Source: a virus
DNA length: 44,124 bases
Strand: one strand, 5' to 3'
Virus record (IMG/VR): IMGVR_UViG_3300035034_003787
Coordinates: 1 to 44,124 of that record
Made by a program: the position numbers and the translations under genes. Numbering within the stretch: position 1 is the stretch's first letter; each line of letters begins with the position of its first letter. Under the pieces are notes generated by a model. The model did not search any database. It worked only from the letters and a program-made list of their open reading frames with translations, and was not told the DNA's origin. Shown here one piece after another: positions 4,095 through 44,124 of this stretch.

Positions 4095-4625
4095 ATGAAA
4101 AAAATAAGTAAACTACTTAGTTTTGTGCTTAGACACAATCCAGGTTCATTGGGCATCGAATTAGACCAGAATGGCTGGGCTAATAAAAAAGAGTTAATTT
4201 TGGCTATTAAAGAACACAACGGTATAGAAGTATCGGAAAGTGACATTGACACAATAGTTGAAACTAACGATAAGAAAAGATTCATTCTTAGCGAAGATGG
4301 TAAAAGCATTAGAGCTAATCAGGGGCATTCTATAAATGTGGATGTTCAACTAAAAGAGTTTCCACCACCAGAATATTTATTTCACGGAACTGTTAATAGG
4401 TTCAAGTCGGATATAATGAGGGAAGGACTGAAAAAAATGAAGCGGAAACACGTTCATTTGAGTTCTGATATAGATACAGCTATTAACGTAGGAAGGAGAA
4501 GAGGTAAGGCTATAATACTTAGAATAAAAGCCGGAGATATGCAGCTGGATGGCTATAAGTTTTATCTATCAGAAAATGGGGTATGGCTTACCGATCACGT
4601 ACCTTCTGAATACATAGAATTTTAA
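4095..4625 (+). CDS. kptA: RNA 2'-phosphotransferase (Tpt1/KptA)
   Basis: Removes an internal 2'-phosphate from RNA, using NAD+ and releasing ADP-ribose 1'',2''-cyclic phosphate. At 176 residues it is close to the bacterial KptA length. Visible family motifs: LSFVLRHNP with the Arg-His pair (R13, H14), NGW, IRANQGHS (R73), LFHGT, HVHLS and an Arg-rich GRRRGKAIILRI segment in the NAD-binding half. It fits the other RNA-repair genes here (RlaP-like, RNA ligase, cyclic-phosphate receiver). It has its own host-type promoter box just upstream, suggesting early expression apart from the preceding genes. Identification is firm; use in healing tRNA damage is inference. Confidence 0.97.
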   Translation: MKKISKLLSFVLRHNPGSLGIELDQNGWANKKELILAIKEHNGIEVSESDIDTIVETNDKKRFILSEDGKSIRANQGHSINVDVQLKEFPPPEYLFHGTVNRFKSDIMREGLKKMKRKHVHLSSDIDTAINVGRRRGKAIILRIKAGDMQLDGYKFYLSENGVWLTDHVPSEYIEF

Positions 4626-7673: not shown

Positions 7674-8121
7674 AATTGTATCAGCATTTCCGGGAATAGG
7701 AAAAAGTTACTATTTTAAAGAAAATCCAGGAGATAGTATAGATTCAGATTATAGCTTATTTAGTTGGGTAAAGGATGAAAACGGTAAAAATACTAAGGAA
7801 AGAAATCCAGAATTCCCAGGGAATTATATAAAGCACATTAAGAAGAATATAGGGAACTATAAATATATTTTTGTATCTTCCCATAAGGAGGTTAGAGAAG
7901 CTTTAAAAGAGGCTTGTTTACATTTTTATTTAATATATCCCGGAATAGCTAGGAAAGGTGAATTTCTAGAGAGATATGAAGAAAGAGGGAATCCAGATAG
8001 CTTTATAAATCTAATAGACGAAAACTGGGAATCCTGGATCACTGAATGTGCTTTAGAAGATAGATGTGAAAAAACAGTATTAACTGAAGGGAATCTAACT
8101 GATTTTTTAAAAATTATATGA
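7663..8121 (+). CDS. P-loop protein, possible nucleotide kinase
   Basis: 152 residues. The N-terminal strand runs into SAFPGIGKSYYF, a Walker A variant (GxGKS), followed by SIDSDYS, as in small phage P-loop proteins related to adenylate kinase. A second strand, YKYIFVSSHKEVR, resembles the Walker-B-like/SSH region of that family. It overlaps the start of the ThyA-family gene by four bases (ATGA). If that enzyme makes hydroxymethyl-dCMP, this protein could be the matching monophosphate kinase, as T4 gp1 is for gp42; this is inference from position. Confidence 0.65.
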   Translation: METRIVSAFPGIGKSYYFKENPGDSIDSDYSLFSWVKDENGKNTKERNPEFPGNYIKHIKKNIGNYKYIFVSSHKEVREALKEACLHFYLIYPGIARKGEFLERYEERGNPDSFINLIDENWESWITECALEDRCEKTVLTEGNLTDFLKII

Positions 8122-8885
8122 GAACTTTTCAAAAACCTTCTGATGCTATAAAATGGTCCAAGGAAAGGCTCTATAATAATGGATACGTTGTAAAAACTGA
8201 AAAATGGCAGGGGGTAGATTCTCCAGACGACATGTGGGAAACAATGAACCACTCGTTCCAAATGTTTATTCCAGAAACTCTAGATGAATTGAAAAAAGAG
8301 GTAAGACCAAATCTTCCTTGGGCAGATGAACATTTTGAAGAGAGGGTTAGCGGATTTCCTTTAAATCCTCCCCCATCTCATATTAGATGGCCTTTTGCCC
8401 AAAAAAATAATGAACAATTTGGGGGTAATGAAAAATTCTCCCATACATATCCTGAAAGAATCTGGCCCAAATATGCAGGGGATAAAATAAATACGGGGAT
8501 TAGATATGAATATGGGGATTTTGGTGATGTTGCGGAGTTAATGAATAAGGAGCCATTCACTAGACAAGCATTCCTTCCGCTGTGGTTCCCGGAGGATACC
8601 GGAGTTGTACATAAGGAAAGAGTACCATGCACAATAGGTTACCATTTTATGCGGAGGGGTGACCATTTACACATGAACTATTTTATAAGATCCTGTGATC
8701 TTATAAGGCACTTTAGAGACGACGTATACATGGCATGTAGGAAGTTAATGTGGCTTTTAGATAAATTAAGAGAGTTAAATCCGGCTAAATGGGAAAATGT
8801 CAAGCCAGGATACTATGCAATGCATATAATTTCATTACATTGCTTTAATAAAGAGAAAGGAATATTAAAACAAAATAACATATAA
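8118..8885 (+). CDS. Thymidylate synthase superfamily enzyme, probably dCMP-specific
   Basis: 255 residues, near T4 dCMP hydroxymethylase gp42 (246). The catalytic cysteine is C171 in RVPCTIGYHF. Nineteen residues later comes the phosphate-binding RSCD (R191-D194), the same spacing as in T4 gp42 as I recall it. Where ThyA has Asn (PFNIA) to bind the uracil face, this protein has Asp (HFRDDVY, D202), as gp42 has D179. That change is associated with cytosine specificity, so hydroxymethylation or methylation of dCMP is more likely than dTMP synthesis. Coupled to the P-loop gene. The superfamily is firm; substrate choice is inference from one residue. Confidence 0.82.
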   Translation: MRTFQKPSDAIKWSKERLYNNGYVVKTEKWQGVDSPDDMWETMNHSFQMFIPETLDELKKEVRPNLPWADEHFEERVSGFPLNPPPSHIRWPFAQKNNEQFGGNEKFSHTYPERIWPKYAGDKINTGIRYEYGDFGDVAELMNKEPFTRQAFLPLWFPEDTGVVHKERVPCTIGYHFMRRGDHLHMNYFIRSCDLIRHFRDDVYMACRKLMWLLDKLRELNPAKWENVKPGYYAMHIISLHCFNKEKGILKQNNI

Positions 8886-21720: not shown

Positions 21721-22725
21721 ATGAATCCAGTTAAGAAAGAATACGAGATCGGAGTTATAATAGGAAGATTTCAAGTTCATGAACTTCATGGAGCTCATTT
21801 AAAATTAATAGGTAAAGTAGTTAAAAATCATAAAAGAGTGGTTTTGTTTCTTGGTGTAGCACCAACATTGGCTACTAGGAATAACCCCTTAGATTTTGAA
21901 ACTAGAGCTCGAATGATCAGGGAACAATTTCCAGAAATTTCCATTATGCCGATGAAAGATCGGAATAATGATAAAGAATGGTCTAATGAAATAGACCGAA
22001 GAATTAAAGAAGTATTTCCTATGGGTACCGTAGTTCTTTACGGAAGTCGGGATTCTTTTATACCCCATTACAAAGGAAAATTTGATACATTAGAACTGGA
22101 ACAAGAAATATTTGTTTCTGGAACTGAAGTAAGAAAATCAGTAAGTGAAGAAATTAAATCAGACTCTAATTTTAGAGCTGGAGTAATATATGCTACTCAT
22201 AACCAATATCCAAAGGTTTTTCCAACAGTGGATGTTGTTGTAGTTAAAGGAAATAAATTCGTTTTAGGAAAAAAACCAGGAGAATCTAAGTATAGATTTG
22301 TCGGTGGATTTGTAGACCCTTCGGACGAATCATTAGAAATGGCGGCATCTAGAGAAGCTAAAGAGGAATTGGGAATGATTGAAATTGCTGATTTTGAATA
22401 CATATCATCTAGAAGAATAGACGATTGGAGATATCGAAAAGAAGTTGATTCCATAACAACTACATTTTTTGCTTGTAAATATTTATATGGGGCAATTAAA
22501 CCGGCGGACGATATATCAGAAGCTAGATGGTTTGAGTTTGAAGGATTTCTGGAAAATCCCAAGGAAGATAAATTTAGACATATGAAATTAAGTTCACCCA
22601 TAATGAATAAATTGATAATGCCCGAGCATCACCAATTATTTATGGACTTTTTTGAATACTTGAAAGAGAGAATAGAAACTAACAAAATAATTGAAATAAC
22701 TAAAAATGTCACAATTACTGAATAG
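21721..22725 (+). CDS. nadM: Bifunctional NMN adenylyltransferase-Nudix
   Basis: 334 residues in two domains. Residues 1-165: NMN adenylyltransferase with GRFQVHELHGAH (GRFQ-x-x-H signature) and the C-terminal VSGTEVRKS (ISGTxVR); it makes NAD+ from NMN and ATP. Residues 170-330: Nudix domain with GGFVDPSDESLEMAASRE followed by AKEELG, as in NadM-Nudix proteins that cleave ADP-ribose. It is followed by a terminator and then by NAMPT. Together they convert nicotinamide to NAD+, the pair known as NAD+ reconstitution pathway 2 (NARP2) in phages, which counters NAD-depleting defences. A host-type promoter precedes it. Confidence 0.96.
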   Translation: MNPVKKEYEIGVIIGRFQVHELHGAHLKLIGKVVKNHKRVVLFLGVAPTLATRNNPLDFETRARMIREQFPEISIMPMKDRNNDKEWSNEIDRRIKEVFPMGTVVLYGSRDSFIPHYKGKFDTLELEQEIFVSGTEVRKSVSEEIKSDSNFRAGVIYATHNQYPKVFPTVDVVVVKGNKFVLGKKPGESKYRFVGGFVDPSDESLEMAASREAKEELGMIEIADFEYISSRRIDDWRYRKEVDSITTTFFACKYLYGAIKPADDISEARWFEFEGFLENPKEDKFRHMKLSSPIMNKLIMPEHHQLFMDFFEYLKERIETNKIIEITKNVTITE

Positions 22726-22859: not shown

Positions 22860-24353
22860 ATGAAAATGATGAACATTCCGATATTTTCAGAAATGAATAT
22901 CGCAGAAAAAGTTAGATTATTGAAAAATAATTTTGGTCTCAAATCGGACAGTTATAAATTTAGTCATGCTTCTCAATATCCTCCAGGAACAACTAATGTA
23001 ATTTCTTACATGGAAGCCAGAGGATCTGATCATCCATTAAGACAGGAAGTAGCTGTTGTAGGAATGCAAGCTAATTTGATAAAGCATTTTGTTGGAGTTA
23101 GAATGACTAAGGAGCTTCTTGATATAGCAGAAATGTTTTCCAACGCCCACTTTGGTCTGGGTCTTGATGGAAAAACTCCAGCGGTTCCTTTTAACAGAAA
23201 GGGGTGGGAATACATTATAGAAAACCACGGGGGTAAATTACCTCTAAGAATTAAATCCGTACCTGAAGGTATGGTAGTTCCGTTAAAAGAAGTTATTTCA
23301 ACATTTGAAATAACTGATAACCATTCCTTTTGGTTAACTAATTTTTCAGAAACACTTCTTTCTCATAATTGGTTCCCTATAACTATAGCTTCCAATAGCA
23401 GGGAAATGAAAAAGATTCTTAAGCATGGATTGGAACTAACAGCAGATCCCGGAATGGCTGAAATTCTACTTCCAACTAGATTGGTTGATTTTGGTTTTAG
23501 AGGAGTAGAAACCCCGGACGCAGCTGGAGTAGGTGGAATGGCTCATTTAGTTAATTTTGAATCTACCGACAATACCGCAGGAATAATAGAAGCAATGATC
23601 TATTATAACGCAGGAATGATTGGGAGCTCAATACCGGCCTCCGAACATTCTACCATAACCAGTTGGGGAAAGGAAAATGAATCTAAAGCCATAGGTAATC
23701 TATTAGATTCCTATCGAAATGCAAAATATGTTGCATCAGTTTCAGATTCTTTTGATATATTTAATGCAGCTAGGAAAATATACGGAGAAGATTTAAAAGA
23801 CAAAATTTTAGTAGACGGAAAGGTTGTTTTGGTAAGACCTGATTCAGGAGATCCAATAGAGGTAAACCGAAAAGTCATTAAAATTCTTTGGGATAAATTC
23901 GGAGGTCATGTAAATTCGAGAGGATTTAAAGTTCTAGATCCCCATATAAGAATAATCCAAGGGGATGGTATAGATATAGATTCTCTACAAGGAATCTTAG
24001 ATATGCTTATCGAGGAAAAATTCTCTACCGAGATTATAGCTTTCGGATCAGGCGGAGGTCTTCTACAGAAATTTGATAGAGATACATTCAAATTTGCTAT
24101 TAAGTGCTCTATGGCAATTGTAAACGGAGAAGAGGTTGATGTACAGAAGGATCCTATAACATCTAAGGGTAAAAAATCAAAACCAGGAAGGCTAAAACTA
24201 GTCCGAGGAAAAGGTGGGGTTTTATATACAGCTTCTTCAAAAACTCACAAAAATTTTGAAGAATTGGAAGATGTAATGGAATTGATTTTCGAAAACGGAG
24301 AGATGGTTAAAACTTATGATATTGATGAAATTAGAGAAAGAGCATCTTTATAA
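22860..24353 (+). CDS. nadV: Nicotinamide phosphoribosyltransferase (NAMPT/NadV)
   Basis: 497 residues, the usual length. It condenses nicotinamide with PRPP to NMN. Visible signatures: DSYKFSHASQYPPGT near the start, YMEARG, DFGFRGVE with the DxG-R-G, ASEHS (the catalytic His region), SVSDSFDIFNA, VRPDSGDP (PRPP/ribose-binding) and ILDMLIEEKF. With the upstream NMNAT it rebuilds NAD+ from nicotinamide left by defence NADases. Phage-encoded pairs of this kind (NARP2) are established as counter-defence. ATG 22860 is preferred; a second ATG at 22866 is only two codons later. Confidence 0.98.
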   Translation: MKMMNIPIFSEMNIAEKVRLLKNNFGLKSDSYKFSHASQYPPGTTNVISYMEARGSDHPLRQEVAVVGMQANLIKHFVGVRMTKELLDIAEMFSNAHFGLGLDGKTPAVPFNRKGWEYIIENHGGKLPLRIKSVPEGMVVPLKEVISTFEITDNHSFWLTNFSETLLSHNWFPITIASNSREMKKILKHGLELTADPGMAEILLPTRLVDFGFRGVETPDAAGVGGMAHLVNFESTDNTAGIIEAMIYYNAGMIGSSIPASEHSTITSWGKENESKAIGNLLDSYRNAKYVASVSDSFDIFNAARKIYGEDLKDKILVDGKVVLVRPDSGDPIEVNRKVIKILWDKFGGHVNSRGFKVLDPHIRIIQGDGIDIDSLQGILDMLIEEKFSTEIIAFGSGGGLLQKFDRDTFKFAIKCSMAIVNGEEVDVQKDPITSKGKKSKPGRLKLVRGKGGVLYTASSKTHKNFEELEDVMELIFENGEMVKTYDIDEIRERASL

Positions 24354-26945: not shown

Positions 26946-28040
26946 ATGAAAGAAGATATATCGATAATATTTAAAACTATAATTGGATCACATGCACATG
27001 GGACAAATATAGAAGGATCCGACGTTGATATAAAAGGGATTTATATACAGAGTCCGGAATCCATTTTAGATCATGGATACAGAGAACAATACGAGGTTAA
27101 TCCTGACGAGGTTTATTATGAGTTAAGGAGAGTGGTAGAATTGTGTTGTACTTCAAATCCGACAATGCTGGAAATCATATTCAGTCCAGAAGATTGCATC
27201 TTAGAGAAACATCCTGTAATGGATATCTTATTAAATATAAAAGATCAGTTTCTTTCCAAATCATGTAAATATTCATTTGGTGGATATGCTAAGTCTCAAA
27301 TATCTAAAGCTTCGGGGCTTCAGAAAAAAATGAACTGGAGTGAGGATTCCAAAACGAGATCTTCTATGCTGGATTTTTGTTTCGTCCCCGATGGTAGAGG
27401 GGGTAGCAGAAAACTAGTAGACTATTTAAAAGAAAGGGAAATCAACCAGGAAAATATAGGGTTAACTAGTATCCCTAATATGGGAAATTATTACGGGATG
27501 TTTTATTCACCTAATATTCCCTACCGTGGAATAGTAAACAAAACTTCAACGGAGGTAAGACTTAGTAGCATACCTAAATCTGAAATGGGAAATTACCTAG
27601 GAGCAATGTATTACAACCAAGGAGAATTCTCTAAGCACTGTAAAAATTATACCTCATATCAAAAATGGTTGAAGGAAAGGAACACCCAAAGATATGTTGA
27701 TATAGAAAAACACAATCAGAAAATTGACGGTAAGAATATGCTACATTGTATTAGACTTTGTGAAATGAGTCAAGAAATAGCAGAAGGAAGGGGTTTTAAT
27801 GTTAGAAGGCCTAATCCGGAGTATTTAATTTCTATTAGAAAAGGAAAAGTTGATCTGAAATCTTTATTAGATAGAGTTAATGAAATATTAAAAGAGAGTG
27901 ACAGCAAATACGAAAACTCTAAACTCCCAGAAAAAATAGATCCGGATATTTTCATGGAGGCTGTAAAAAAAATGAGAAAAGCGTATCATAATTCTAGAGT
28001 TAAAGAAAATCATATTTTCCCTAATAAACTGATCAACTAG
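26946..28040 (+). CDS. RlaP-like DNA polymerase beta superfamily nucleotidyltransferase
   Basis: 364 residues. The N-terminal signature GSHAHGTNIEGSDVDIKG is a pol-beta-type nucleotidyltransferase active site (GSxxxGT-x4-SDxD), followed by a helical region with ELCCTSNPTMLEIIF. This matches the RlaP/YcgL-type group (PF10127), linked in bacteria to RNA repair operons. The substrate is unknown; tRNA end or phosphate metabolism is likely given KptA, RNA ligase and the CCA-type enzyme nearby. Its 3' end overlaps a minus-strand homing endonuclease by eight bases. Confidence 0.88.
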   Translation: MKEDISIIFKTIIGSHAHGTNIEGSDVDIKGIYIQSPESILDHGYREQYEVNPDEVYYELRRVVELCCTSNPTMLEIIFSPEDCILEKHPVMDILLNIKDQFLSKSCKYSFGGYAKSQISKASGLQKKMNWSEDSKTRSSMLDFCFVPDGRGGSRKLVDYLKEREINQENIGLTSIPNMGNYYGMFYSPNIPYRGIVNKTSTEVRLSSIPKSEMGNYLGAMYYNQGEFSKHCKNYTSYQKWLKERNTQRYVDIEKHNQKIDGKNMLHCIRLCEMSQEIAEGRGFNVRRPNPEYLISIRKGKVDLKSLLDRVNEILKESDSKYENSKLPEKIDPDIFMEAVKKMRKAYHNSRVKENHIFPNKLIN

Positions 28041-29121
28041 GAGGCTTTAGCATCTTGCAATTATCTCCATGCCATCTTATATAATTTCCTTTAGATATAG
28101 TTGATTTATTACAATTTTTGCATACATAAACATTTGATGAATTCCTGATATTTTCCCATCTTTTTTTATTTGTTTCACTCATTTTTTTTCTAGTTTCCTT
28201 AGAAAAAATCCTACCTTTATTATACAATCCCTTTCTAATTCTAGTTTCATATGAATCCTCCTTCCCTTTATTTTTCCTAGTCTTAGATATTTTTTCACCA
28301 ATTTTATAACCGCGGGTTTCTTTAAGTGAAGTCTTATCTAATATAAATTTCGGATTTTTTTTACATGCATCTCCGTGGAAAGTAAGGTAGTTATAATTAT
28401 TAACCTTCCTATCACAATACTCGCATTCTATTCTATCGGGTTTGTTTTTCTTTTCCATATTAGGGTTTTCTTTACAGTATTTCCCATGATGTATATGAAA
28501 TCTTGTTGGATTTGTTGAAATCCCGCAATATTCACATTCTATTTTAATCTTATCCTTTATTTCCATATTAGGATTTTCTTTACAGTAAGTTCCGTGCCAT
28601 CTTTTATAATTTGCTTTGCTTATATTTTTTTTACAATGTTCGCACTCAACCTTCATATGAGGTTTTAATTTAGATCCTAACACTCTTTTACTAATTCGTT
28701 GTTTCTCTTCTTTTGTAAAAATTCTTCCAGCTCTTCCCTTCATACTTTCGATTATTTCTTCTCTTCTTGGATGATTTGTTAAATTATCTCCGCCAGAGCC
28801 ACCAGAACTAATATTATATCCATTAGGTACAATAGTATTTAATTCGGAAATCCAGTATATTTCCCTCTTTTCTATCATATCTTTAGTTGAAAATTCTATT
28901 ATAGATTTTCTAAAATTAGATTTCCCGTATTTTTTAATGGAATCCTTCAAAGCAATTCCTGAACCAAAATATCTATCATTTATATCCACTGTTTCGTGTT
29001 TCCCTATATACAATTTATTGGAGATTAGGTTTTCTATTTTATAGATATAATATATTTTTTCTTTTATCATAGTATATGTATCTAGTATCTTAATTATTTT
29101 ATTTATATTTATGTTATTCAT
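28033..29121 (-). CDS. GIY-YIG homing endonuclease with four zinc-finger-like repeats
   Basis: 362 residues. N-terminal GIY-YIG domain (YYIYKIENLISNKLYIGKH, then RYFGSG, then FRKSIIEF, EIYWISEL). The middle/C-terminal part has four repeats of the form CxxC-x~12-HG-x3-C: CEHCKKNISKANY, CEYCGISTNPTRF, CEYCDRKVNNYNY and CKNCNKSTISKGNY. A NUMOD3-like stretch (GRIFSKETRKKMSE) precedes the last. Probably a free-standing selfish endonuclease. It may start at 29121 or at an internal ATG near 29070, because residues 1-17 are unusual (Asn/Ile-rich). Confidence 0.93.
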   Translation of the reverse strand: MNNININKIIKILDTYTMIKEKIYYIYKIENLISNKLYIGKHETVDINDRYFGSGIALKDSIKKYGKSNFRKSIIEFSTKDMIEKREIYWISELNTIVPNGYNISSGGSGGDNLTNHPRREEIIESMKGRAGRIFTKEEKQRISKRVLGSKLKPHMKVECEHCKKNISKANYKRWHGTYCKENPNMEIKDKIKIECEYCGISTNPTRFHIHHGKYCKENPNMEKKNKPDRIECEYCDRKVNNYNYLTFHGDACKKNPKFILDKTSLKETRGYKIGEKISKTRKNKGKEDSYETRIRKGLYNKGRIFSKETRKKMSETNKKRWENIRNSSNVYVCKNCNKSTISKGNYIRWHGDNCKMLKPPS

Positions 29122-36618: not shown

Positions 36619-37368
36619 ATGCCAAAATTGTTTGAAGTAGGAGGTTGTGTAAGGGACGAATTCCTAGGAATTCAGTCTGATGATATAGACTTTACCTTTG
36701 TCGCGGATGATTTAACTTTATCTGTAGATGAAGGATTTTCTAACATGACCAAATGGCTAGAAAAGGAAAAATTTAAAATTTTCCTTTCAACCCCTGAAAT
36801 GTTTACCATAAGAGCTAAATTTCCAGATTCAATAGGAATTAGAAAAAATCTAGTAGCAGATTTTGTGATGGCTAGAAAAGAAATAGGATACACCGAGGGA
36901 ACGAGGAGACCTATACTAAAACTAGGAACTCTTGAAGATGATTTGATTAGAAGAGACTTTACCGTTAATGCAATGGCTAAGGACGAGGATGGAAAAATAA
37001 TAGATTTATTTAATGGGGAAAAACATCTATCCGAAGGAATTTTGGATACCCCTTTAGACCCCATGGTAACTTTCATGGACGATCCATTGAGAATGATTAG
37101 AGCTATGAGATTTAGTATTACTAAAGATCTCAAAATAGCTCCTAGAGTATGGGAAGCAATTTCACAACCTGGACTAATCCAGAAAATGAAAGAAACCACA
37201 AGCCAGGAAAGAATTGCGGTAGAAATAACTAAAGCAATGAAGTTTGATACTCTTAAAACACTTAGAATTATAGCTAAGGTGGACGACCACGCTCCAGGAT
37301 TTTTGGAAGCTATATTAGGTAAGGGACTTTGGTTCAAACCTACATTTGAAAAAAAGAAAAAGGATTAG
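36619..37368 (+). CDS. CCA-adding/poly(A) polymerase-like nucleotidyltransferase
   Basis: 249 residues, covering the head and neck of class II tRNA nucleotidyltransferases. Motifs: GGCVRDEFLG, SDDIDFTFV (catalytic DxD-type), RRDFTVNAMA and DLFNGEKHL, DPLRMIRAMRF. The C-terminal body/tail of full-length CCA enzymes is missing, so it resembles the compact phage versions. It could add CCA to the CAU tRNA at 406, which lacks an encoded CCA, or repair host tRNA ends. Preceded by a host-type promoter. Confidence 0.92.
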   Translation: MPKLFEVGGCVRDEFLGIQSDDIDFTFVADDLTLSVDEGFSNMTKWLEKEKFKIFLSTPEMFTIRAKFPDSIGIRKNLVADFVMARKEIGYTEGTRRPILKLGTLEDDLIRRDFTVNAMAKDEDGKIIDLFNGEKHLSEGILDTPLDPMVTFMDDPLRMIRAMRFSITKDLKIAPRVWEAISQPGLIQKMKETTSQERIAVEITKAMKFDTLKTLRIIAKVDDHAPGFLEAILGKGLWFKPTFEKKKKD

Positions 37369-38113: not shown

Positions 38114-39277
38114 ATGGAAGAAAGAAAATTAGCTAGTATACAAAAAGTATTAGAAGTTCTGCCAATAGAGGGAGCAGATGCTATAGAGGTTGTTAGAATA
38201 AATGATTGGAAAGTAGTAGTAAAAAAATCAGATGGTTATAAACCAGGAGATTTAGTAATCTATTGTGAAATTGATTCTTATCTACCAATTAGGGAAGAAT
38301 TTGAATTTCTTAGGGGAAGTTCATATAAGAAACTCGTTGATGGGACAGAAGGATTTAGGTTGAAAACCATTCGTCTCAGAAAGCAAATTTCACAAGGTTT
38401 AGTTTTACCTCTTAGTATTCTGGAGGATCACGATCCTAAATGGGAAGGCGAATTTACTATAGGTACAAGTAACCAGCCTTGGGGGGATCAGCTACAGCTC
38501 GGACCTTATGACGATGCTCTTTTAATAAACGAAGGTGTTGATGTTACAGAAATTCTCGGGATCGTCAAATGGGATCCGCCCGTTCCAGCTCAGTTATCTG
38601 GGAAGGTAAAGGGATACTTCCCTTCATTTATAAGAAAAACTGATGAACCCAGAGTTCAAAACCTAACAAGAGATTACTACAAATGGGTAGAACTAGGTCC
38701 GGTATTTTACTCTGCAGAAAAACTCGATGGATCATCAGCTACTTATTATTTGAAGGATGGAGTATTCGGTGCATGCTCTAGAAATATGGATCTAAAGCCA
38801 CCTGAAAGTGAGTTTAAGGAAGAAATAATAATAGACGACAATGGAATAGAAAAAAAAACACAGGAGAATTCTTTCTGGAAGGTTGCAAGAGAACTAAATT
38901 TAGAAAAAAAGCTCAGAGATTATGGTAAGAATTTATCTATAGCTGGGGAATTAATCGGGGAAGGTATACAAAAAAACCCGTATAAGATAAAAGGACAAAC
39001 AGTTAGATTCTTTAATGTTTTTGATATAAATGACCAAGAATATTATTCTTATGAGGATTTCATAGAATTTATGAAAGCTTTAGAACTTGAGATGGTTCCG
39101 ATTATAGAATCTGAATTCCAGCTTCCTGAAAAAATATCTGATTTAATTGAATTGGCTGATGATAAATCAATCTTGAATAATCAAGCTAATAGGGAAGGAT
39201 TGGTTATTAGAAGTCATGATAGAAAGATAAGCTTTAAAGTTATAAGTAATAGATTTTTATTAAAGAACGAGAAATAG
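38114..39277 (+). CDS. RNA ligase of the DRB0094 (Rnl5) type
   Basis: 387 residues. An N-terminal OB-like domain (1-150: ASIQKVLEVLPIEGADAIEV, WKVVVKKSDGYKPGD) precedes the adenylyltransferase domain. Ligase motifs: AEKLDGSSATYY (motif I with Lys-x-Asp-Gly; attacking Lys), AGELIGEGIQKNPY (III), REGLVIRS (IV) and ISFKVISNRFLL (V). This arrangement matches the Deinococcus DraRnl family, which seals nicked RNA, often 3'-OH/5'-P in duplex. It probably repairs tRNA cut by anticodon nucleases, with KptA and end-healing enzymes. Start is the ATG eight bases after the prior stop. Confidence 0.93.
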   Translation: MEERKLASIQKVLEVLPIEGADAIEVVRINDWKVVVKKSDGYKPGDLVIYCEIDSYLPIREEFEFLRGSSYKKLVDGTEGFRLKTIRLRKQISQGLVLPLSILEDHDPKWEGEFTIGTSNQPWGDQLQLGPYDDALLINEGVDVTEILGIVKWDPPVPAQLSGKVKGYFPSFIRKTDEPRVQNLTRDYYKWVELGPVFYSAEKLDGSSATYYLKDGVFGACSRNMDLKPPESEFKEEIIIDDNGIEKKTQENSFWKVARELNLEKKLRDYGKNLSIAGELIGEGIQKNPYKIKGQTVRFFNVFDINDQEYYSYEDFIEFMKALELEMVPIIESEFQLPEKISDLIELADDKSILNNQANREGLVIRSHDRKISFKVISNRFLLKNEK

Positions 39278-41382: not shown

Positions 41383-42045
41383 TTATTTCCATATTTTGTT
41401 TATTTTACCCCTTTTAAAATGTTTAAGTGACATTTGAGATCCTGTTAAATGATCTATTGCTCTATCCTGGTTATCTTTATATGTTCTAACGTGGTTTACT
41501 TCCCTATCAGATATTGTTCTATTATCTACATAAGATTTAGAATTTAAAGAATTTACCTTTTCTTTTAGTAATTTCCAAGCAGCTTCTTCGTTTCTATTTT
41601 GTGATTTCTCCCCCTGAGAAAACACCTGCAACCCAGTAGGTATATGTGTTAATTGGACTGCTGTTTCTACTTTGTTTCTGTGCTGCCCTCCTGCTCCAGA
41701 ACCTCTAGTATACTTTCTCCTTACTGAAGAAAAATCTAGATCTATTTCGGGTTTATTAGATTCCTCGTAAACTAAAACTATTACACCAGAAGTGTGAGTA
41801 CGGTTTCTTTTTTCCGTAGGTGAAACACGGTGCCATTTGTGAAGGCCGTTTTCTTGAAAATATTTATTTAGGGTTTTTGAGGGTCCTTTAAGAATTATCT
41901 TACTGAACCCGTCTCTTCAGTCTACTACTTCAGATTCTATAGATAATACTGATGCTGACTTTTGGTAAATGTCAGTCATCTCCTTAACTAGGATCTTGGC
42001 TTCCTTTCCACCTTGATCTTCTCTTAATTCGATTGTTAGTTTCAT
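41383..42045 (-). CDS. Peptide chain release factor family protein with in-frame TGA
   Basis: A frame of 220 codons plus stop runs from ATG 42045 to 41383, interrupted only by TGA at codon 43 (41919-41917). The downstream part has RGSGAGGQHRNKVETAVQL, with the GGQ motif (119-121) for peptide release. HRVSPTEKRNRTHTS occupies the codon-recognition site (RF1 PAT, RF2 SPF); here it reads SPT. Spacing SPT-to-GGQ (44) equals RF1. Residues 1-42 match a short release factor N-terminus (REDQGGKEAKIL). No ATG, GTG or TTG follows the TGA until codon 139, after GGQ, so restart cannot make a working protein. The TGA could be readthrough, a TGG-to-TGA error, or mutation. Overlapped on neither side; preceded by GATATATAA. 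Confidence 0.9.
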
Positions 42046-42178: not shown

Positions 42179-44124
42179 ATGAAAAGAAAAGAAATTTTAA
42201 AAAGAGCTAAATTCAAAACCAAAAGAGGGTTAGATAGACTTGGGCTTTCTAAATGGGAGGGAGAACATTTAAAGGATTCGTGCAGCCACGAAATACTTAA
42301 AAAAAACATAGAAGATCCCAATACTGATGAAAAAATTCCCGGGGATTCTTTTACTACTTATACAGAAGAAGAGTTAGAAGAAATAGTAAAAAAGGGTGCC
42401 AAAAAATTACAAAAAATTAAGGAATCTAAACCCCAAGCAGACGGGGAAGAAGAAATGCCCGAAGCGAATATTATTGTAGACATTTGTATTATTCATCTTG
42501 AAGCTAATGATTTCGGTAATGAGTTGGGTAAAATATCCGAAGATCAAGCTATGTCCTCTATTGAATCACTACATCATTCTTTTAGAAACAGTGGATCTCA
42601 TCAGGAAACTAATGGAGTAGATACTAAAATTAATTTTGGTCCAGGAAAAATAAGATACCTTAATGGTTCAGAGGTATGGGGTGAGCAGTTTACAGCAACA
42701 GGTGTAAACTACACAAATGCTGCTGGTCAAGGACCAAATAGTTCAACCATTCTTGAGTATGTTAAAAAGAACGTTATGGATTCCTGGAATGATCCGACCA
42801 GATACTTAATAGTTTCCTTCCCAAAAATGAACGGCAGTCAAAGTATTGCGGGTTGGGCATGGGTTGGTCAACAGGCCACCAGTAGATTAGCGGGTCATTT
42901 TGTGCGTTATTTTTATCTCGGGCACCGAGATTACATGGAAGAGCCTGGTTTTTATTCTCGAAGAAATAAGGTGGCTATCCATGAGGTGGGTCATTCGTTT
43001 GGGCTTTTTCACACTTTTAATAATACTTCAGCTTGCGACTCAGAAACAAATCCAGCATTTCAGGGTGATAGGGTAATAGATACGCCACCTCACCCGTTAG
43101 GTAGTAGATGTGGATATGAATTAGATGAACTTCCACATAATTCTCACATGAGCTATAGTAGTAGCACCCGAAGGGTCTTATTTAGCCAGGGTCAAGTGGA
43201 TAGAATGAGAAGTGTTATTGCATTTGGGTATCCTGAAACATTTAATAATCCTTATCATGATTGGGATAATCCAGGGCCAAGATTAGGTTGTACAGACCCA
43301 GAAGCTAATAATTATAGCCCTAGTGCTAATCAAGATGACGGGAGCTGCACCTATGATCCTATAATTTTAGGTTGTATGGATTCTACCGCTAACAATTATA
43401 ATGCTGAAGCCACAGAAGATGACGGTTCTTGTACCTACGATGCGGAAGGAACAAAGACTTATAGACAAAATGATGCCGTTTTATCAGATGATTATGACTC
43501 GGATAAAGATATGAATTTTGAAGCAGACATAGTTTTTCCGAATAAATCCATTTCTACACCCAGAGGAACTATTTATGAAGCTGGTGGTTCAGGAACTGGG
43601 ACTTTTGTAGGATATAACACAGAGGGTATTTTTACAGCTAGATCCGGAAGTGGAGCGGAAATTATTTCCAATGATTCAGCAAGATTAGTAATCCCAACAT
43701 CGGTTTATGATTTTTCTGGGAAATCTGGAAAATTAAAGTATTCAGTAAACCTAGGAACTAACTCAATAAGAATCCAATTTGATGAAGGGAATACTGGAAC
43801 TTATGATCTTGATTTAACCAATACAGCAGAAGGATCTATAACAAATTGGTCAGGTGGGGATGAAGGAGGTGTAGGATTTGCATCAGGAAATTCTATATCT
43901 GGACCTGAAGTTACTTCACCTTCTACCTTTTATGGAACAATAACTAAATTATTTTTTAGTCAATTAGAAACTGAAAAAATATTAGGTTGTATGGACTCTA
44001 ATGCTAATAACTTTAATGCAAAAGCTACTGAAGACGATGGAAGCTGTACTTATGATCCCGTTGTTATAAAAGGTTGTATGGACTCTAATGCTAATAACTT
44101 TAATCCAGAAGCTACTGAAGACGA
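42179..44124 (+). CDS. M43-like metalloprotease with GCxD repeats (partial)
   Basis: Open from ATG 42179 to the window edge (648 codons and counting). Residues about 100-345 form a zincin domain with HEVGHSFGLFH (268-278, HExxHxxGxxH) and a Met-turn SHMSYSS (Met 324), the pappalysin (M43) pattern. Then come 28-29-residue repeats GCTDPEANNYSPSANQDDGS and GCMDSTANNYNAEATEDDGS near residues 370 and 398. A beta jelly-roll-like segment (about 430-595) follows, then two more repeats near 603 and 632. These repeats are frequent in Bacteroidetes secreted proteins. No signal peptide is evident (MKRKEILKRAK), so it may be a virion protein that cuts host surface protein or glycan layers. The C-terminal end is outside the window. 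Confidence 0.88.
   Translation, partial: MKRKEILKRAKFKTKRGLDRLGLSKWEGEHLKDSCSHEILKKNIEDPNTDEKIPGDSFTTYTEEELEEIVKKGAKKLQKIKESKPQADGEEEMPEANIIVDICIIHLEANDFGNELGKISEDQAMSSIESLHHSFRNSGSHQETNGVDTKINFGPGKIRYLNGSEVWGEQFTATGVNYTNAAGQGPNSSTILEYVKKNVMDSWNDPTRYLIVSFPKMNGSQSIAGWAWVGQQATSRLAGHFVRYFYLGHRDYMEEPGFYSRRNKVAIHEVGHSFGLFHTFNNTSACDSETNPAFQGDRVIDTPPHPLGSRCGYELDELPHNSHMSYSSSTRRVLFSQGQVDRMRSVIAFGYPETFNNPYHDWDNPGPRLGCTDPEANNYSPSANQDDGSCTYDPIILGCMDSTANNYNAEATEDDGSCTYDAEGTKTYRQNDAVLSDDYDSDKDMNFEADIVFPNKSISTPRGTIYEAGGSGTGTFVGYNTEGIFTARSGSGAEIISNDSARLVIPTSVYDFSGKSGKLKYSVNLGTNSIRIQFDEGNTGTYDLDLTNTAEGSITNWSGGDEGGVGFASGNSISGPEVTSPSTFYGTITKLFFSQLETEKILGCMDSNANNFNAKATEDDGSCTYDPVVIKGCMDSNANNFNPEATED

What the first reader, a model, noticed from the sequence alone, without database searches (positions are those of the whole stretch)
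41383..42045. Release factor gene with an in-frame UGA that its product may itself recognise
The minus-strand frame is complete from ATG 42045 to TAA 41383 except for TGA at codon 43. Both sides of the TGA look like one release factor (REDQGGKEAK before; SPT and GGQ after). After the TGA the first ATG, GTG or TTG is codon 139, past GGQ at 119-121, so restart cannot rescue it. Neither a +1 nor a -1 shift opens a longer frame, unlike the prfB +1 site (CTT TGA C). Many genes here end in TGA, so a general code change is excluded. Remaining options: programmed UGA readthrough (termination factor level sensing, analogous to prfB autoregulation), a TGG-to-TGA mutation, or a sequence error.
Basis: partly seen in the sequence, partly recalled or inferred. 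Interest (0 to 1): 0.85.

Follow-up and report, generated by a model that had tools for sequence, protein, structure and literature searches.

The report
Phage release factors gated by stops
The stop codon inside this phage translation-termination gene looks real and deliberate: nearly all of about 200 related genes, mostly from phages, carry a stop signal at the same early place that the ribosome must read through or slip past, a design long proposed for such genes but reported absent from bacteria, so the factor is probably made only when termination in the infected cell falters.

Summary
Confirmed: window 42045-41383 (minus) is one release-factor frame broken only by TGA at codon 43. Error or private mutation is very unlikely: the four nearest huge 'Mahaphages' carry in-frame TGA, and only TGA, in the same stretch of this gene, although 45-89 sampled genes of each end in TGA and no other convincing gene is interrupted. 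Profile searches gave about 200 distinct short RF1-like genes: 106 with in-frame stops at codons 30-63 (nearly all TGA), 82 with a prfB-type +1 frameshift cassette (CTT TGA/TAG/TAA) at codons 33-51, 12 uninterrupted. Both sides of the TGA are under equal purifying selection, +4 bases are the leaky C or A, and one 69-member clade has a covarying 17-bp hairpin 7 nt after the UGA, which replaces RF1's conserved Trp. Best reading: programmed UGA readthrough gates the factor. A 2016 review states that early in-frame UGA in RF2 genes, and the UAG/RF1 counterpart, are unknown; the nearest precedent is Mimivirus. No experiment yet shows readthrough here.

The parts
41383..42045 (-). N-truncated RF1-like release factor gene, 220 aa if UGA is read through (start ATG 42043-42045, stop TAA 41383-41385)
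41917..41919 (-). in-frame TGA, codon 43, followed by A (UGA-A); proposed programmed readthrough site
   Evidence: same column as a TGA of LR756504 (L003) and LR745206 (L001)
41776..42039 (-). PCRF domain (residues 3-90), split by the TGA
42007..42012 (-). GG at residues 12-13, equivalent to the RF1 GG(D/E)EA segment that contacts the first stop base
   Evidence: contact from PMC3974865
41815..41823 (-). SPT, residues 75-77: place of the stop-codon recognition tripeptide (PPT in most relatives, PxT in RF1, SPF in RF2)
41683..41691 (-). GGQ, residues 119-121, peptide-release motif
41452..41751 (-). RF-1 domain (residues 99-198)
41879..41913 (-). possible RNA hairpin starting 4 nt after the UGA (weak, z -1.6; no comparative support for this phage)

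Best explanation
The gene encodes a domain-1-less RF1-type release factor whose synthesis is gated by an early UGA. Most ribosomes stop at codon 43 and release a 42-aa peptide; when UGA termination is slow, a near-cognate tRNA (most likely tRNA-Trp) is accepted and the full 220-aa factor is made. The phage thus senses a shortage of UGA termination (host RF2, or total termination capacity) and answers by making a factor that relieves termination at UAA, the phage's main stop. Shown by sequence: conservation of recoding sites in the family, selection on both halves, leaky stop context, an RNA element in one clade, and absence of genome-wide UGA reassignment. Inferred: that readthrough occurs, the inserted residue in this phage, which host factor is sensed, and the benefit to the phage. 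The confidence given is for programmed readthrough; for the RF2-sensing logic alone I would say 0.45.
For: In-frame TGA in the same gene of four Mahaphages, with 45-89 genes of each ending in TGA and the RF gene the only convincing TGA-interrupted gene in about 400 kb of each. In the wider family 106 distinct in-frame and 82 distinct +1-frameshift genes against 12 uninterrupted, all 188 keeping GGQ. Median dN/dS 0.10 before and 0.11 after the TGA. In the 33 genes with the stop after codon 36 the +4 base of TGA is C 23, A 22, T 0, against T 96 and C 13 of 279 ordinary TGA ends (p 6e-8 and 4e-14); +4A and +4C favour readthrough (PMC5289835). In the codon-35 clade synonymous codons are nearly frozen after the UGA around a 17-bp hairpin with 77 double-change cells against 25.9 in shuffles, and the UGA column is Trp in 21 of 29 cellular RF1s. 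No UCA tRNA was found in the stretches scanned. The family moves between +1 frameshift and in-frame stop on the tree. Precedent: Mimivirus class-I RF, UGA-C readthrough tested in E. coli (PMC3521657).
Against: No experiment shows readthrough in any of these phages. The window is a long branch whose place in the family is unsure; it has no second isolate and no comparatively supported RNA element. The product is RF1-like in most members, so a UGA gate does not give simple negative feedback. The TAG sites and the CUA tRNAs beside some of these genes do not fit a pure RF2-sensing model.
Confidence: 0.8

Rival explanations
1. Negative autoregulation: the product itself terminates at UGA, so readthrough falls as the factor accumulates, as in prfB but with in-frame continuation.
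For: The window has SPT in place of PxT; Ser at the first place is RF2-like and could permit G at the second stop base (own knowledge of Ito et al. 2000). prfB logic is established (PMC12421855). RF1-type members with a CTT TAG site (18 of 82) would be self-sensing at UAG.
Against: 182 of 188 recoded genes do not have Ser at the first place of the motif and 176 have Q three residues before it, which is RF1-type, while the site is TGA in most. SPx members are enriched for TAG/TAA sites (4 of 6 against 18 of 182, p 0.002, not corrected for kinship), the opposite of what self-sensing at UGA predicts.
Confidence: 0.25
2. Sequencing error, private mutation or pseudogene.
For: One contig only; no second isolate found.
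Against: Same interruption in many independent assemblies, purifying selection on both halves, GGQ kept throughout.
Confidence: 0.04
3. UGA is reassigned genome-wide, or a suppressor tRNA or selenocysteine decodes it constitutively.
For: Huge phages carry many tRNAs and some phages reassign stops.
Against: TGA ends about 11-23% of genes and is otherwise absent inside convincing genes; no UCA tRNA in the stretches scanned; no Rfam SECIS match at the window site or in four codon-35 loci; Cys is not typical of these columns in relatives.
Confidence: 0.05
4. Two separate proteins made by restart after the stop.
For: Some family members have a start codon soon after the stop.
Against: In only 37 of 106 genes is there a restart codon before the recognition motif; in the window the first is past GGQ; a restart product lacks the GG segment used to read the stop codon.
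Confidence: 0.03

Closest known systems
Bacterial prfB (RF2) programmed +1 frameshift
   Same: Early stop in a class-I release factor gene that the ribosome must bypass; the sister group uses the same cassette (SD-like purines, CTT TGA C) (PMC12421855)
   Different: Here the product is RF1-like and lacks domain 1; the frameshift site is at codons 33-51, not about 26; 18 of 82 frameshift sites are CTT TAG, seen in 0 of 8,164 prfB motifs; the window and 105 others continue in frame
Mimivirus/Megavirus class-I release factor (R726/mg280)
   Same: Viral release factor gene with UGA-C readthrough and CUU UAG/UAA C frameshift (PMC3521657)
   Different: Eukaryotic/archaeal-type factor of amoeba viruses with both events in one gene; the phage genes are bacterial RF1-type and each uses one kind of event
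PrfH (RFH)
   Same: Class-I release factor without domain 1, about 200 aa
   Different: Weaker match than RF1 (window 61 against 135 bits) and far below the PrfH cut-off of 167; motif PPT/SPT, not the SxY of RFH
Stop-recoded phages that carry their own release factors and suppressor tRNAs
   Same: Phage-encoded release factor, suppressor tRNAs in some genomes
   Different: UGA is an ordinary stop in the genomes tested and only the release factor gene is interrupted by it

Membership tests
Class-I bacterial release factor | PCRF and RF-1 domains with GGQ, release-factor fold | tested here: met
RF1 (prfA) | PxT recognition motif with Gln at -3 | tested here: not met
   Not met in the window (SPT, His at -3); met in most relatives (PPT; Gln in 176 of 188)
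RF1 (prfA) | Curated prfA score and domain 1 | tested here: not met
   135 bits against cut-off 400; domain 1 absent; separate group from cellular RF1 on the tree. So 'RF1-like', not prfA
prfB autoregulatory frameshift | CTT stop C slip site with SD-like element and +1 continuation | tested here: not met
   Window codon before TGA is GAC and the downstream part is in frame; met in 82 sister genes
prfB autoregulatory frameshift | Product reads the gating stop codon | not testable with these tools
   needs a release assay; motif argues against it for most members
PrfH | TIGR03072 score above 166.65 | tested here: not met
   61.3 bits
Programmed stop-codon readthrough gene | Conserved in-frame stop with both sides under selection | tested here: met
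Programmed stop-codon readthrough gene | 3' stimulatory RNA element (common, not obligatory) | tested here: inconclusive
   Strong in the codon-35 clade, weak in others and in the window
Programmed stop-codon readthrough gene | Readthrough product detected | not testable with these tools
   no proteomics or reporter available
UGA-reassigned phage | TGA inside many genes | tested here: not met

The most novel reading that the evidence does not exclude
Phages carry a widespread class of RF1-type factors whose production is gated by a stop codon that the factor itself cannot read, so that the phage measures the host's other release factor (RF2) rather than its own product; the gate has switched repeatedly in evolution between +1 frameshift and stop-codon readthrough, with a dedicated RNA hairpin in one lineage.
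Probability: 0.45. Interest if true: 0.95.

Novelty: new variant of a known kind. Interest (0 to 1): 0.9.

Why it matters
Regulation of a release factor by readthrough of an early in-frame UGA was entertained before the RF2 gene was sequenced, and a major review states that no RF2 gene has it and that the UAG/RF1 counterpart is unknown (PMC5009743). Here it appears in over a hundred RF1-like genes, mostly of phages, beside a sister group that carries the prfB frameshift cassette in RF1-like genes, where a 12,753-genome survey found no programmed frameshift in prfA (PMC12421855). It offers natural series for studying how frameshift and readthrough signals interconvert, a readthrough hairpin to test, and evidence that huge phages, like giant viruses, control termination during infection. 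It also means that standard gene callers truncate or miss these genes.

Tried and rejected
General UGA reassignment. UGA-decoding (UCA) tRNA in the phages: not found in the parts scanned, which are not whole genomes. Selenocysteine: no Rfam match and Cys is not typical at the sites. Hirsh-type tRNA-Trp: by eye the LR745206 tRNA-Trp and one of two in LR756501 have U11-A24 (sequences), but I judge this too common to count as evidence. RNA hairpin as a general feature: only the codon-35 clade is convincing. PrfH membership. A second isolate of the window locus (none). Literature searches for phage release factors with recoding found no report, but the library lacks most subscription journals. 33 loci could not be parsed automatically and are outside the counts; most of these are bacterial genome hits, and eight of the phage ones read by eye or by another script were also recoded: +1 frameshift in L095, L210 and L243, in-frame TGA in L099, L100 and L110.

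Full report
OBSERVATION. The minus-strand frame 42045-41383 is intact except for TGA at codon 43. Read through, it gives a 220-aa protein with the PCRF and RF-1 domains of class-I release factors on either side of the stop. The window is an IMG/VR virus record of 44,124 bases. It uses TGA as a stop in 11 of 57 ORFs taken as genes and carries only two tRNAs, Ser and Met.

RELATIVES. The nearest annotated-phage relatives are the huge phages LR745206, LR756502, LR756504 and LR756501, whose 634, 642, 636 and 735 kb lengths are those of the largest Mahaphages, predicted to replicate in Bacteroidetes (PMC7162821). All have in-frame TGA in the same early part of the gene: two in LR745206, one in LR756502, one in LR756504 at the window's position, two in LR756501. 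LR756511 (L005) is uninterrupted. In about 400 kb of each of these four genomes TGA ends 89/452, 67/456, 45/420 and 78/384 genes (LR745206, LR756502, LR756504, LR756501); a scan for reading frames open only if TGA is read through returns the release factor as the only convincing gene in each, the rest being gene fusions across normal stops or noise by my reading.

THE FAMILY. Three profile scans of IMG/VR and one of GTDB genomes, with the loci, were parsed together. Among short, domain-1-less genes there are 106 distinct with in-frame stops (one Gracilibacteria hit, L286, was set aside because UGA is Gly there, own knowledge), 82 distinct with a +1 frameshift, and 12 without interruption. Some of these lie on bacterial genome records, among them Minicystis rosea, Nannocystis, Achromobacter anxifer and Thalassospira xianhensis; whether these are prophages was not settled. 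The search seeds were mostly interrupted genes, but the search patterns themselves do not involve the stop.

FRAMESHIFT GROUP. All 82 sites are CTT followed by TGA (62), TAG (18) or TAA (2), with C next in 71% and a purine run at -11 to -7; SD-like runs are seen in 73 of 82 frameshift genes against 2 of 106 in-frame genes. This is the prfB cassette, moved to codons 33-51 of an RF1-like gene. In a survey of 12,753 bacterial genomes prfA showed no programmed frameshift and TAG occurred in 0 of 8,164 prfB motifs (PMC12421855).

IN-FRAME GROUP. Before L286 was set aside the counts are one TGA in 86 genes, two TGA in 17, TGA with TAG in 2 and TAG in 2. The first stop sits at several positions, codons 30-63, in genes that then stay open to GGQ and beyond (105 of 106 at least 200 aa). 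Median dN/dS is 0.10 upstream and 0.11 downstream in sampled pairs. In the 33 genes with the stop after codon 36 the base after TGA is C 23, A 22, T 0, whereas ordinary TGA ends of the four Mahaphages are C 13, A 136, G 34, T 96. +4U lowers readthrough, +4A favours misreading of UGA by tRNA-Trp in E. coli, and +4C raises readthrough in yeast (PMC5289835). The window's site is UGA-A.

RNA ELEMENT. In the 69 genes with the stop at codon 35, synonymous codons are much more conserved than expected for about 24 codons after UGA and then fall towards background. The alignment folds into a 17-bp stem beginning 7 nt after UGA; 94.5% of cells pair, 7 pairs show double changes, 77 double-change cells against 25.9 in shuffles and at most 15 in slid controls. 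Mean folding z of the 80 nt after the stop is -3.5 there against -1.0 in the other in-frame genes and -1.6 in the window. In this clade the UGA falls on the column that is Trp in 21 of 29 cellular RF1s, after a conserved Gly, so reading UGA as Trp restores the RF1 residue. The window's site is a variable column.

EVOLUTION. A tree of the part after the sites groups these factors apart from cellular RF1 and RF2 (98/77, so not starred). The in-frame label needs 8 changes (at least 5 forced by starred branches, one of which concerns L286) and the frameshift label 11. L135, with CTT TAG at codon 51, lies inside an in-frame clade (100/90) and L316 inside another (100/96); L109 reads CTA TGA in frame at the frameshift position. 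The two mechanisms therefore replace one another. The window is a long branch and its placement is unsure.

PRODUCT. Best matches are RF1 by profile (135 bits against 103 for RF2 and 61 for PrfH), by PDB sequence for relative L121, and by fold for the window: an AlphaFold2 model with mean pLDDT 89 aligns with ribosome-bound mitochondrial and Thermus RF1 (TM to query 0.69-0.76). Residue 43 lies at the end of a strand in the codon-recognition part. The recognition tripeptide is PPT in most members, SPT in the window. PxT goes with UAA/UAG recognition and SPF with UAA/UGA (PMC1976341; PMC3974865). I therefore think most of these factors do not read UGA and that the gate measures host RF2 or general termination stress; the window's SPT leaves self-sensing possible. 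This step is inference.

PRIOR ART. Atkins et al. 2016 write that an early in-frame UGA in the RF2 gene was entertained before sequencing, that no RF2 gene has one continuing in frame, and that the UAG/RF1 counterpart is unknown, noting the amoeba giant virus exception (PMC5009743). That exception, Mimivirus R726, has UGA-C readthrough and a CUU UAG C frameshift, tested by expression in E. coli (PMC3521657). RF2 mutations raise UGA readthrough in Bacillus subtilis from 6% to 19-54% of a reporter (PMC7918605). I found no report of recoding in phage release factors.

LIMITS. No experimental evidence of readthrough; one contig for the window; raw reads unseen; sequence counts reflect database sampling; 33 loci unparsed; p-values are not corrected for kinship.

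Noticed in passing
L053:10585-10738 (LR756501); L107:5635-5707 and 8109-8180; L121:6503-6576: tRNAs with CUA anticodon (amber suppressors, called Pyl by ARAGORN), close to the release factor gene in L107 and L121. Odd beside an RF1-like factor that should read UAG; LR756501 also uses TAG as a stop rarely (15 of 384 genes).
   Followed up: partly
L288, L289, L290, L294, L298, L323, L333 (myxobacterial records), L324 (Achromobacter anxifer), L296 (Thalassospira): Domain-1-less RF1-like genes with a CTT TGA/TAG frameshift or in-frame TGA also lie in bacterial genome records; prophage or cellular was not settled.
   Followed up: partly
L107:1720-2074; L146:125-1487: tmRNA gene about 2 kb upstream of the interrupted release factor gene in L107; in the codon-35 clade the gene often lies beside a tRNA cluster (as in L146).
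   Followed up: no
window 28033-29121 (-): Homing endonuclease-like gene (PHROG match) on the minus strand inside a plus-strand gene array.
   Followed up: no
window 21721-22725 and 22860-24353: Nicotinamide phosphoribosyltransferase (PHROG match) preceded by a gene that looks like an NMN adenylyltransferase (by eye): a possible phage NAD salvage pair.
   Followed up: no
window 4095-4625, 36619-37368, 38114-39277: RNA-repair-like set: RNA ligase (PHROG match at 38114), and by eye a KptA/Tpt1-like 2'-phosphotransferase and a tRNA nucleotidyltransferase-like protein.
   Followed up: no
window 42180-44124 (+), open at the end: Secreted metalloprotease-like protein (HEVGHSFG) with repeated GCMDxxANNxNxxATEDDGSCTY units; by eye, of a type seen in Bacteroidetes.
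   Followed up: no
L134 and L142; second site in L101, L102, L105: In-frame TAG instead of TGA at the same places; L142 is shorter and has a further stop, so it may be decaying.
   Followed up: partly
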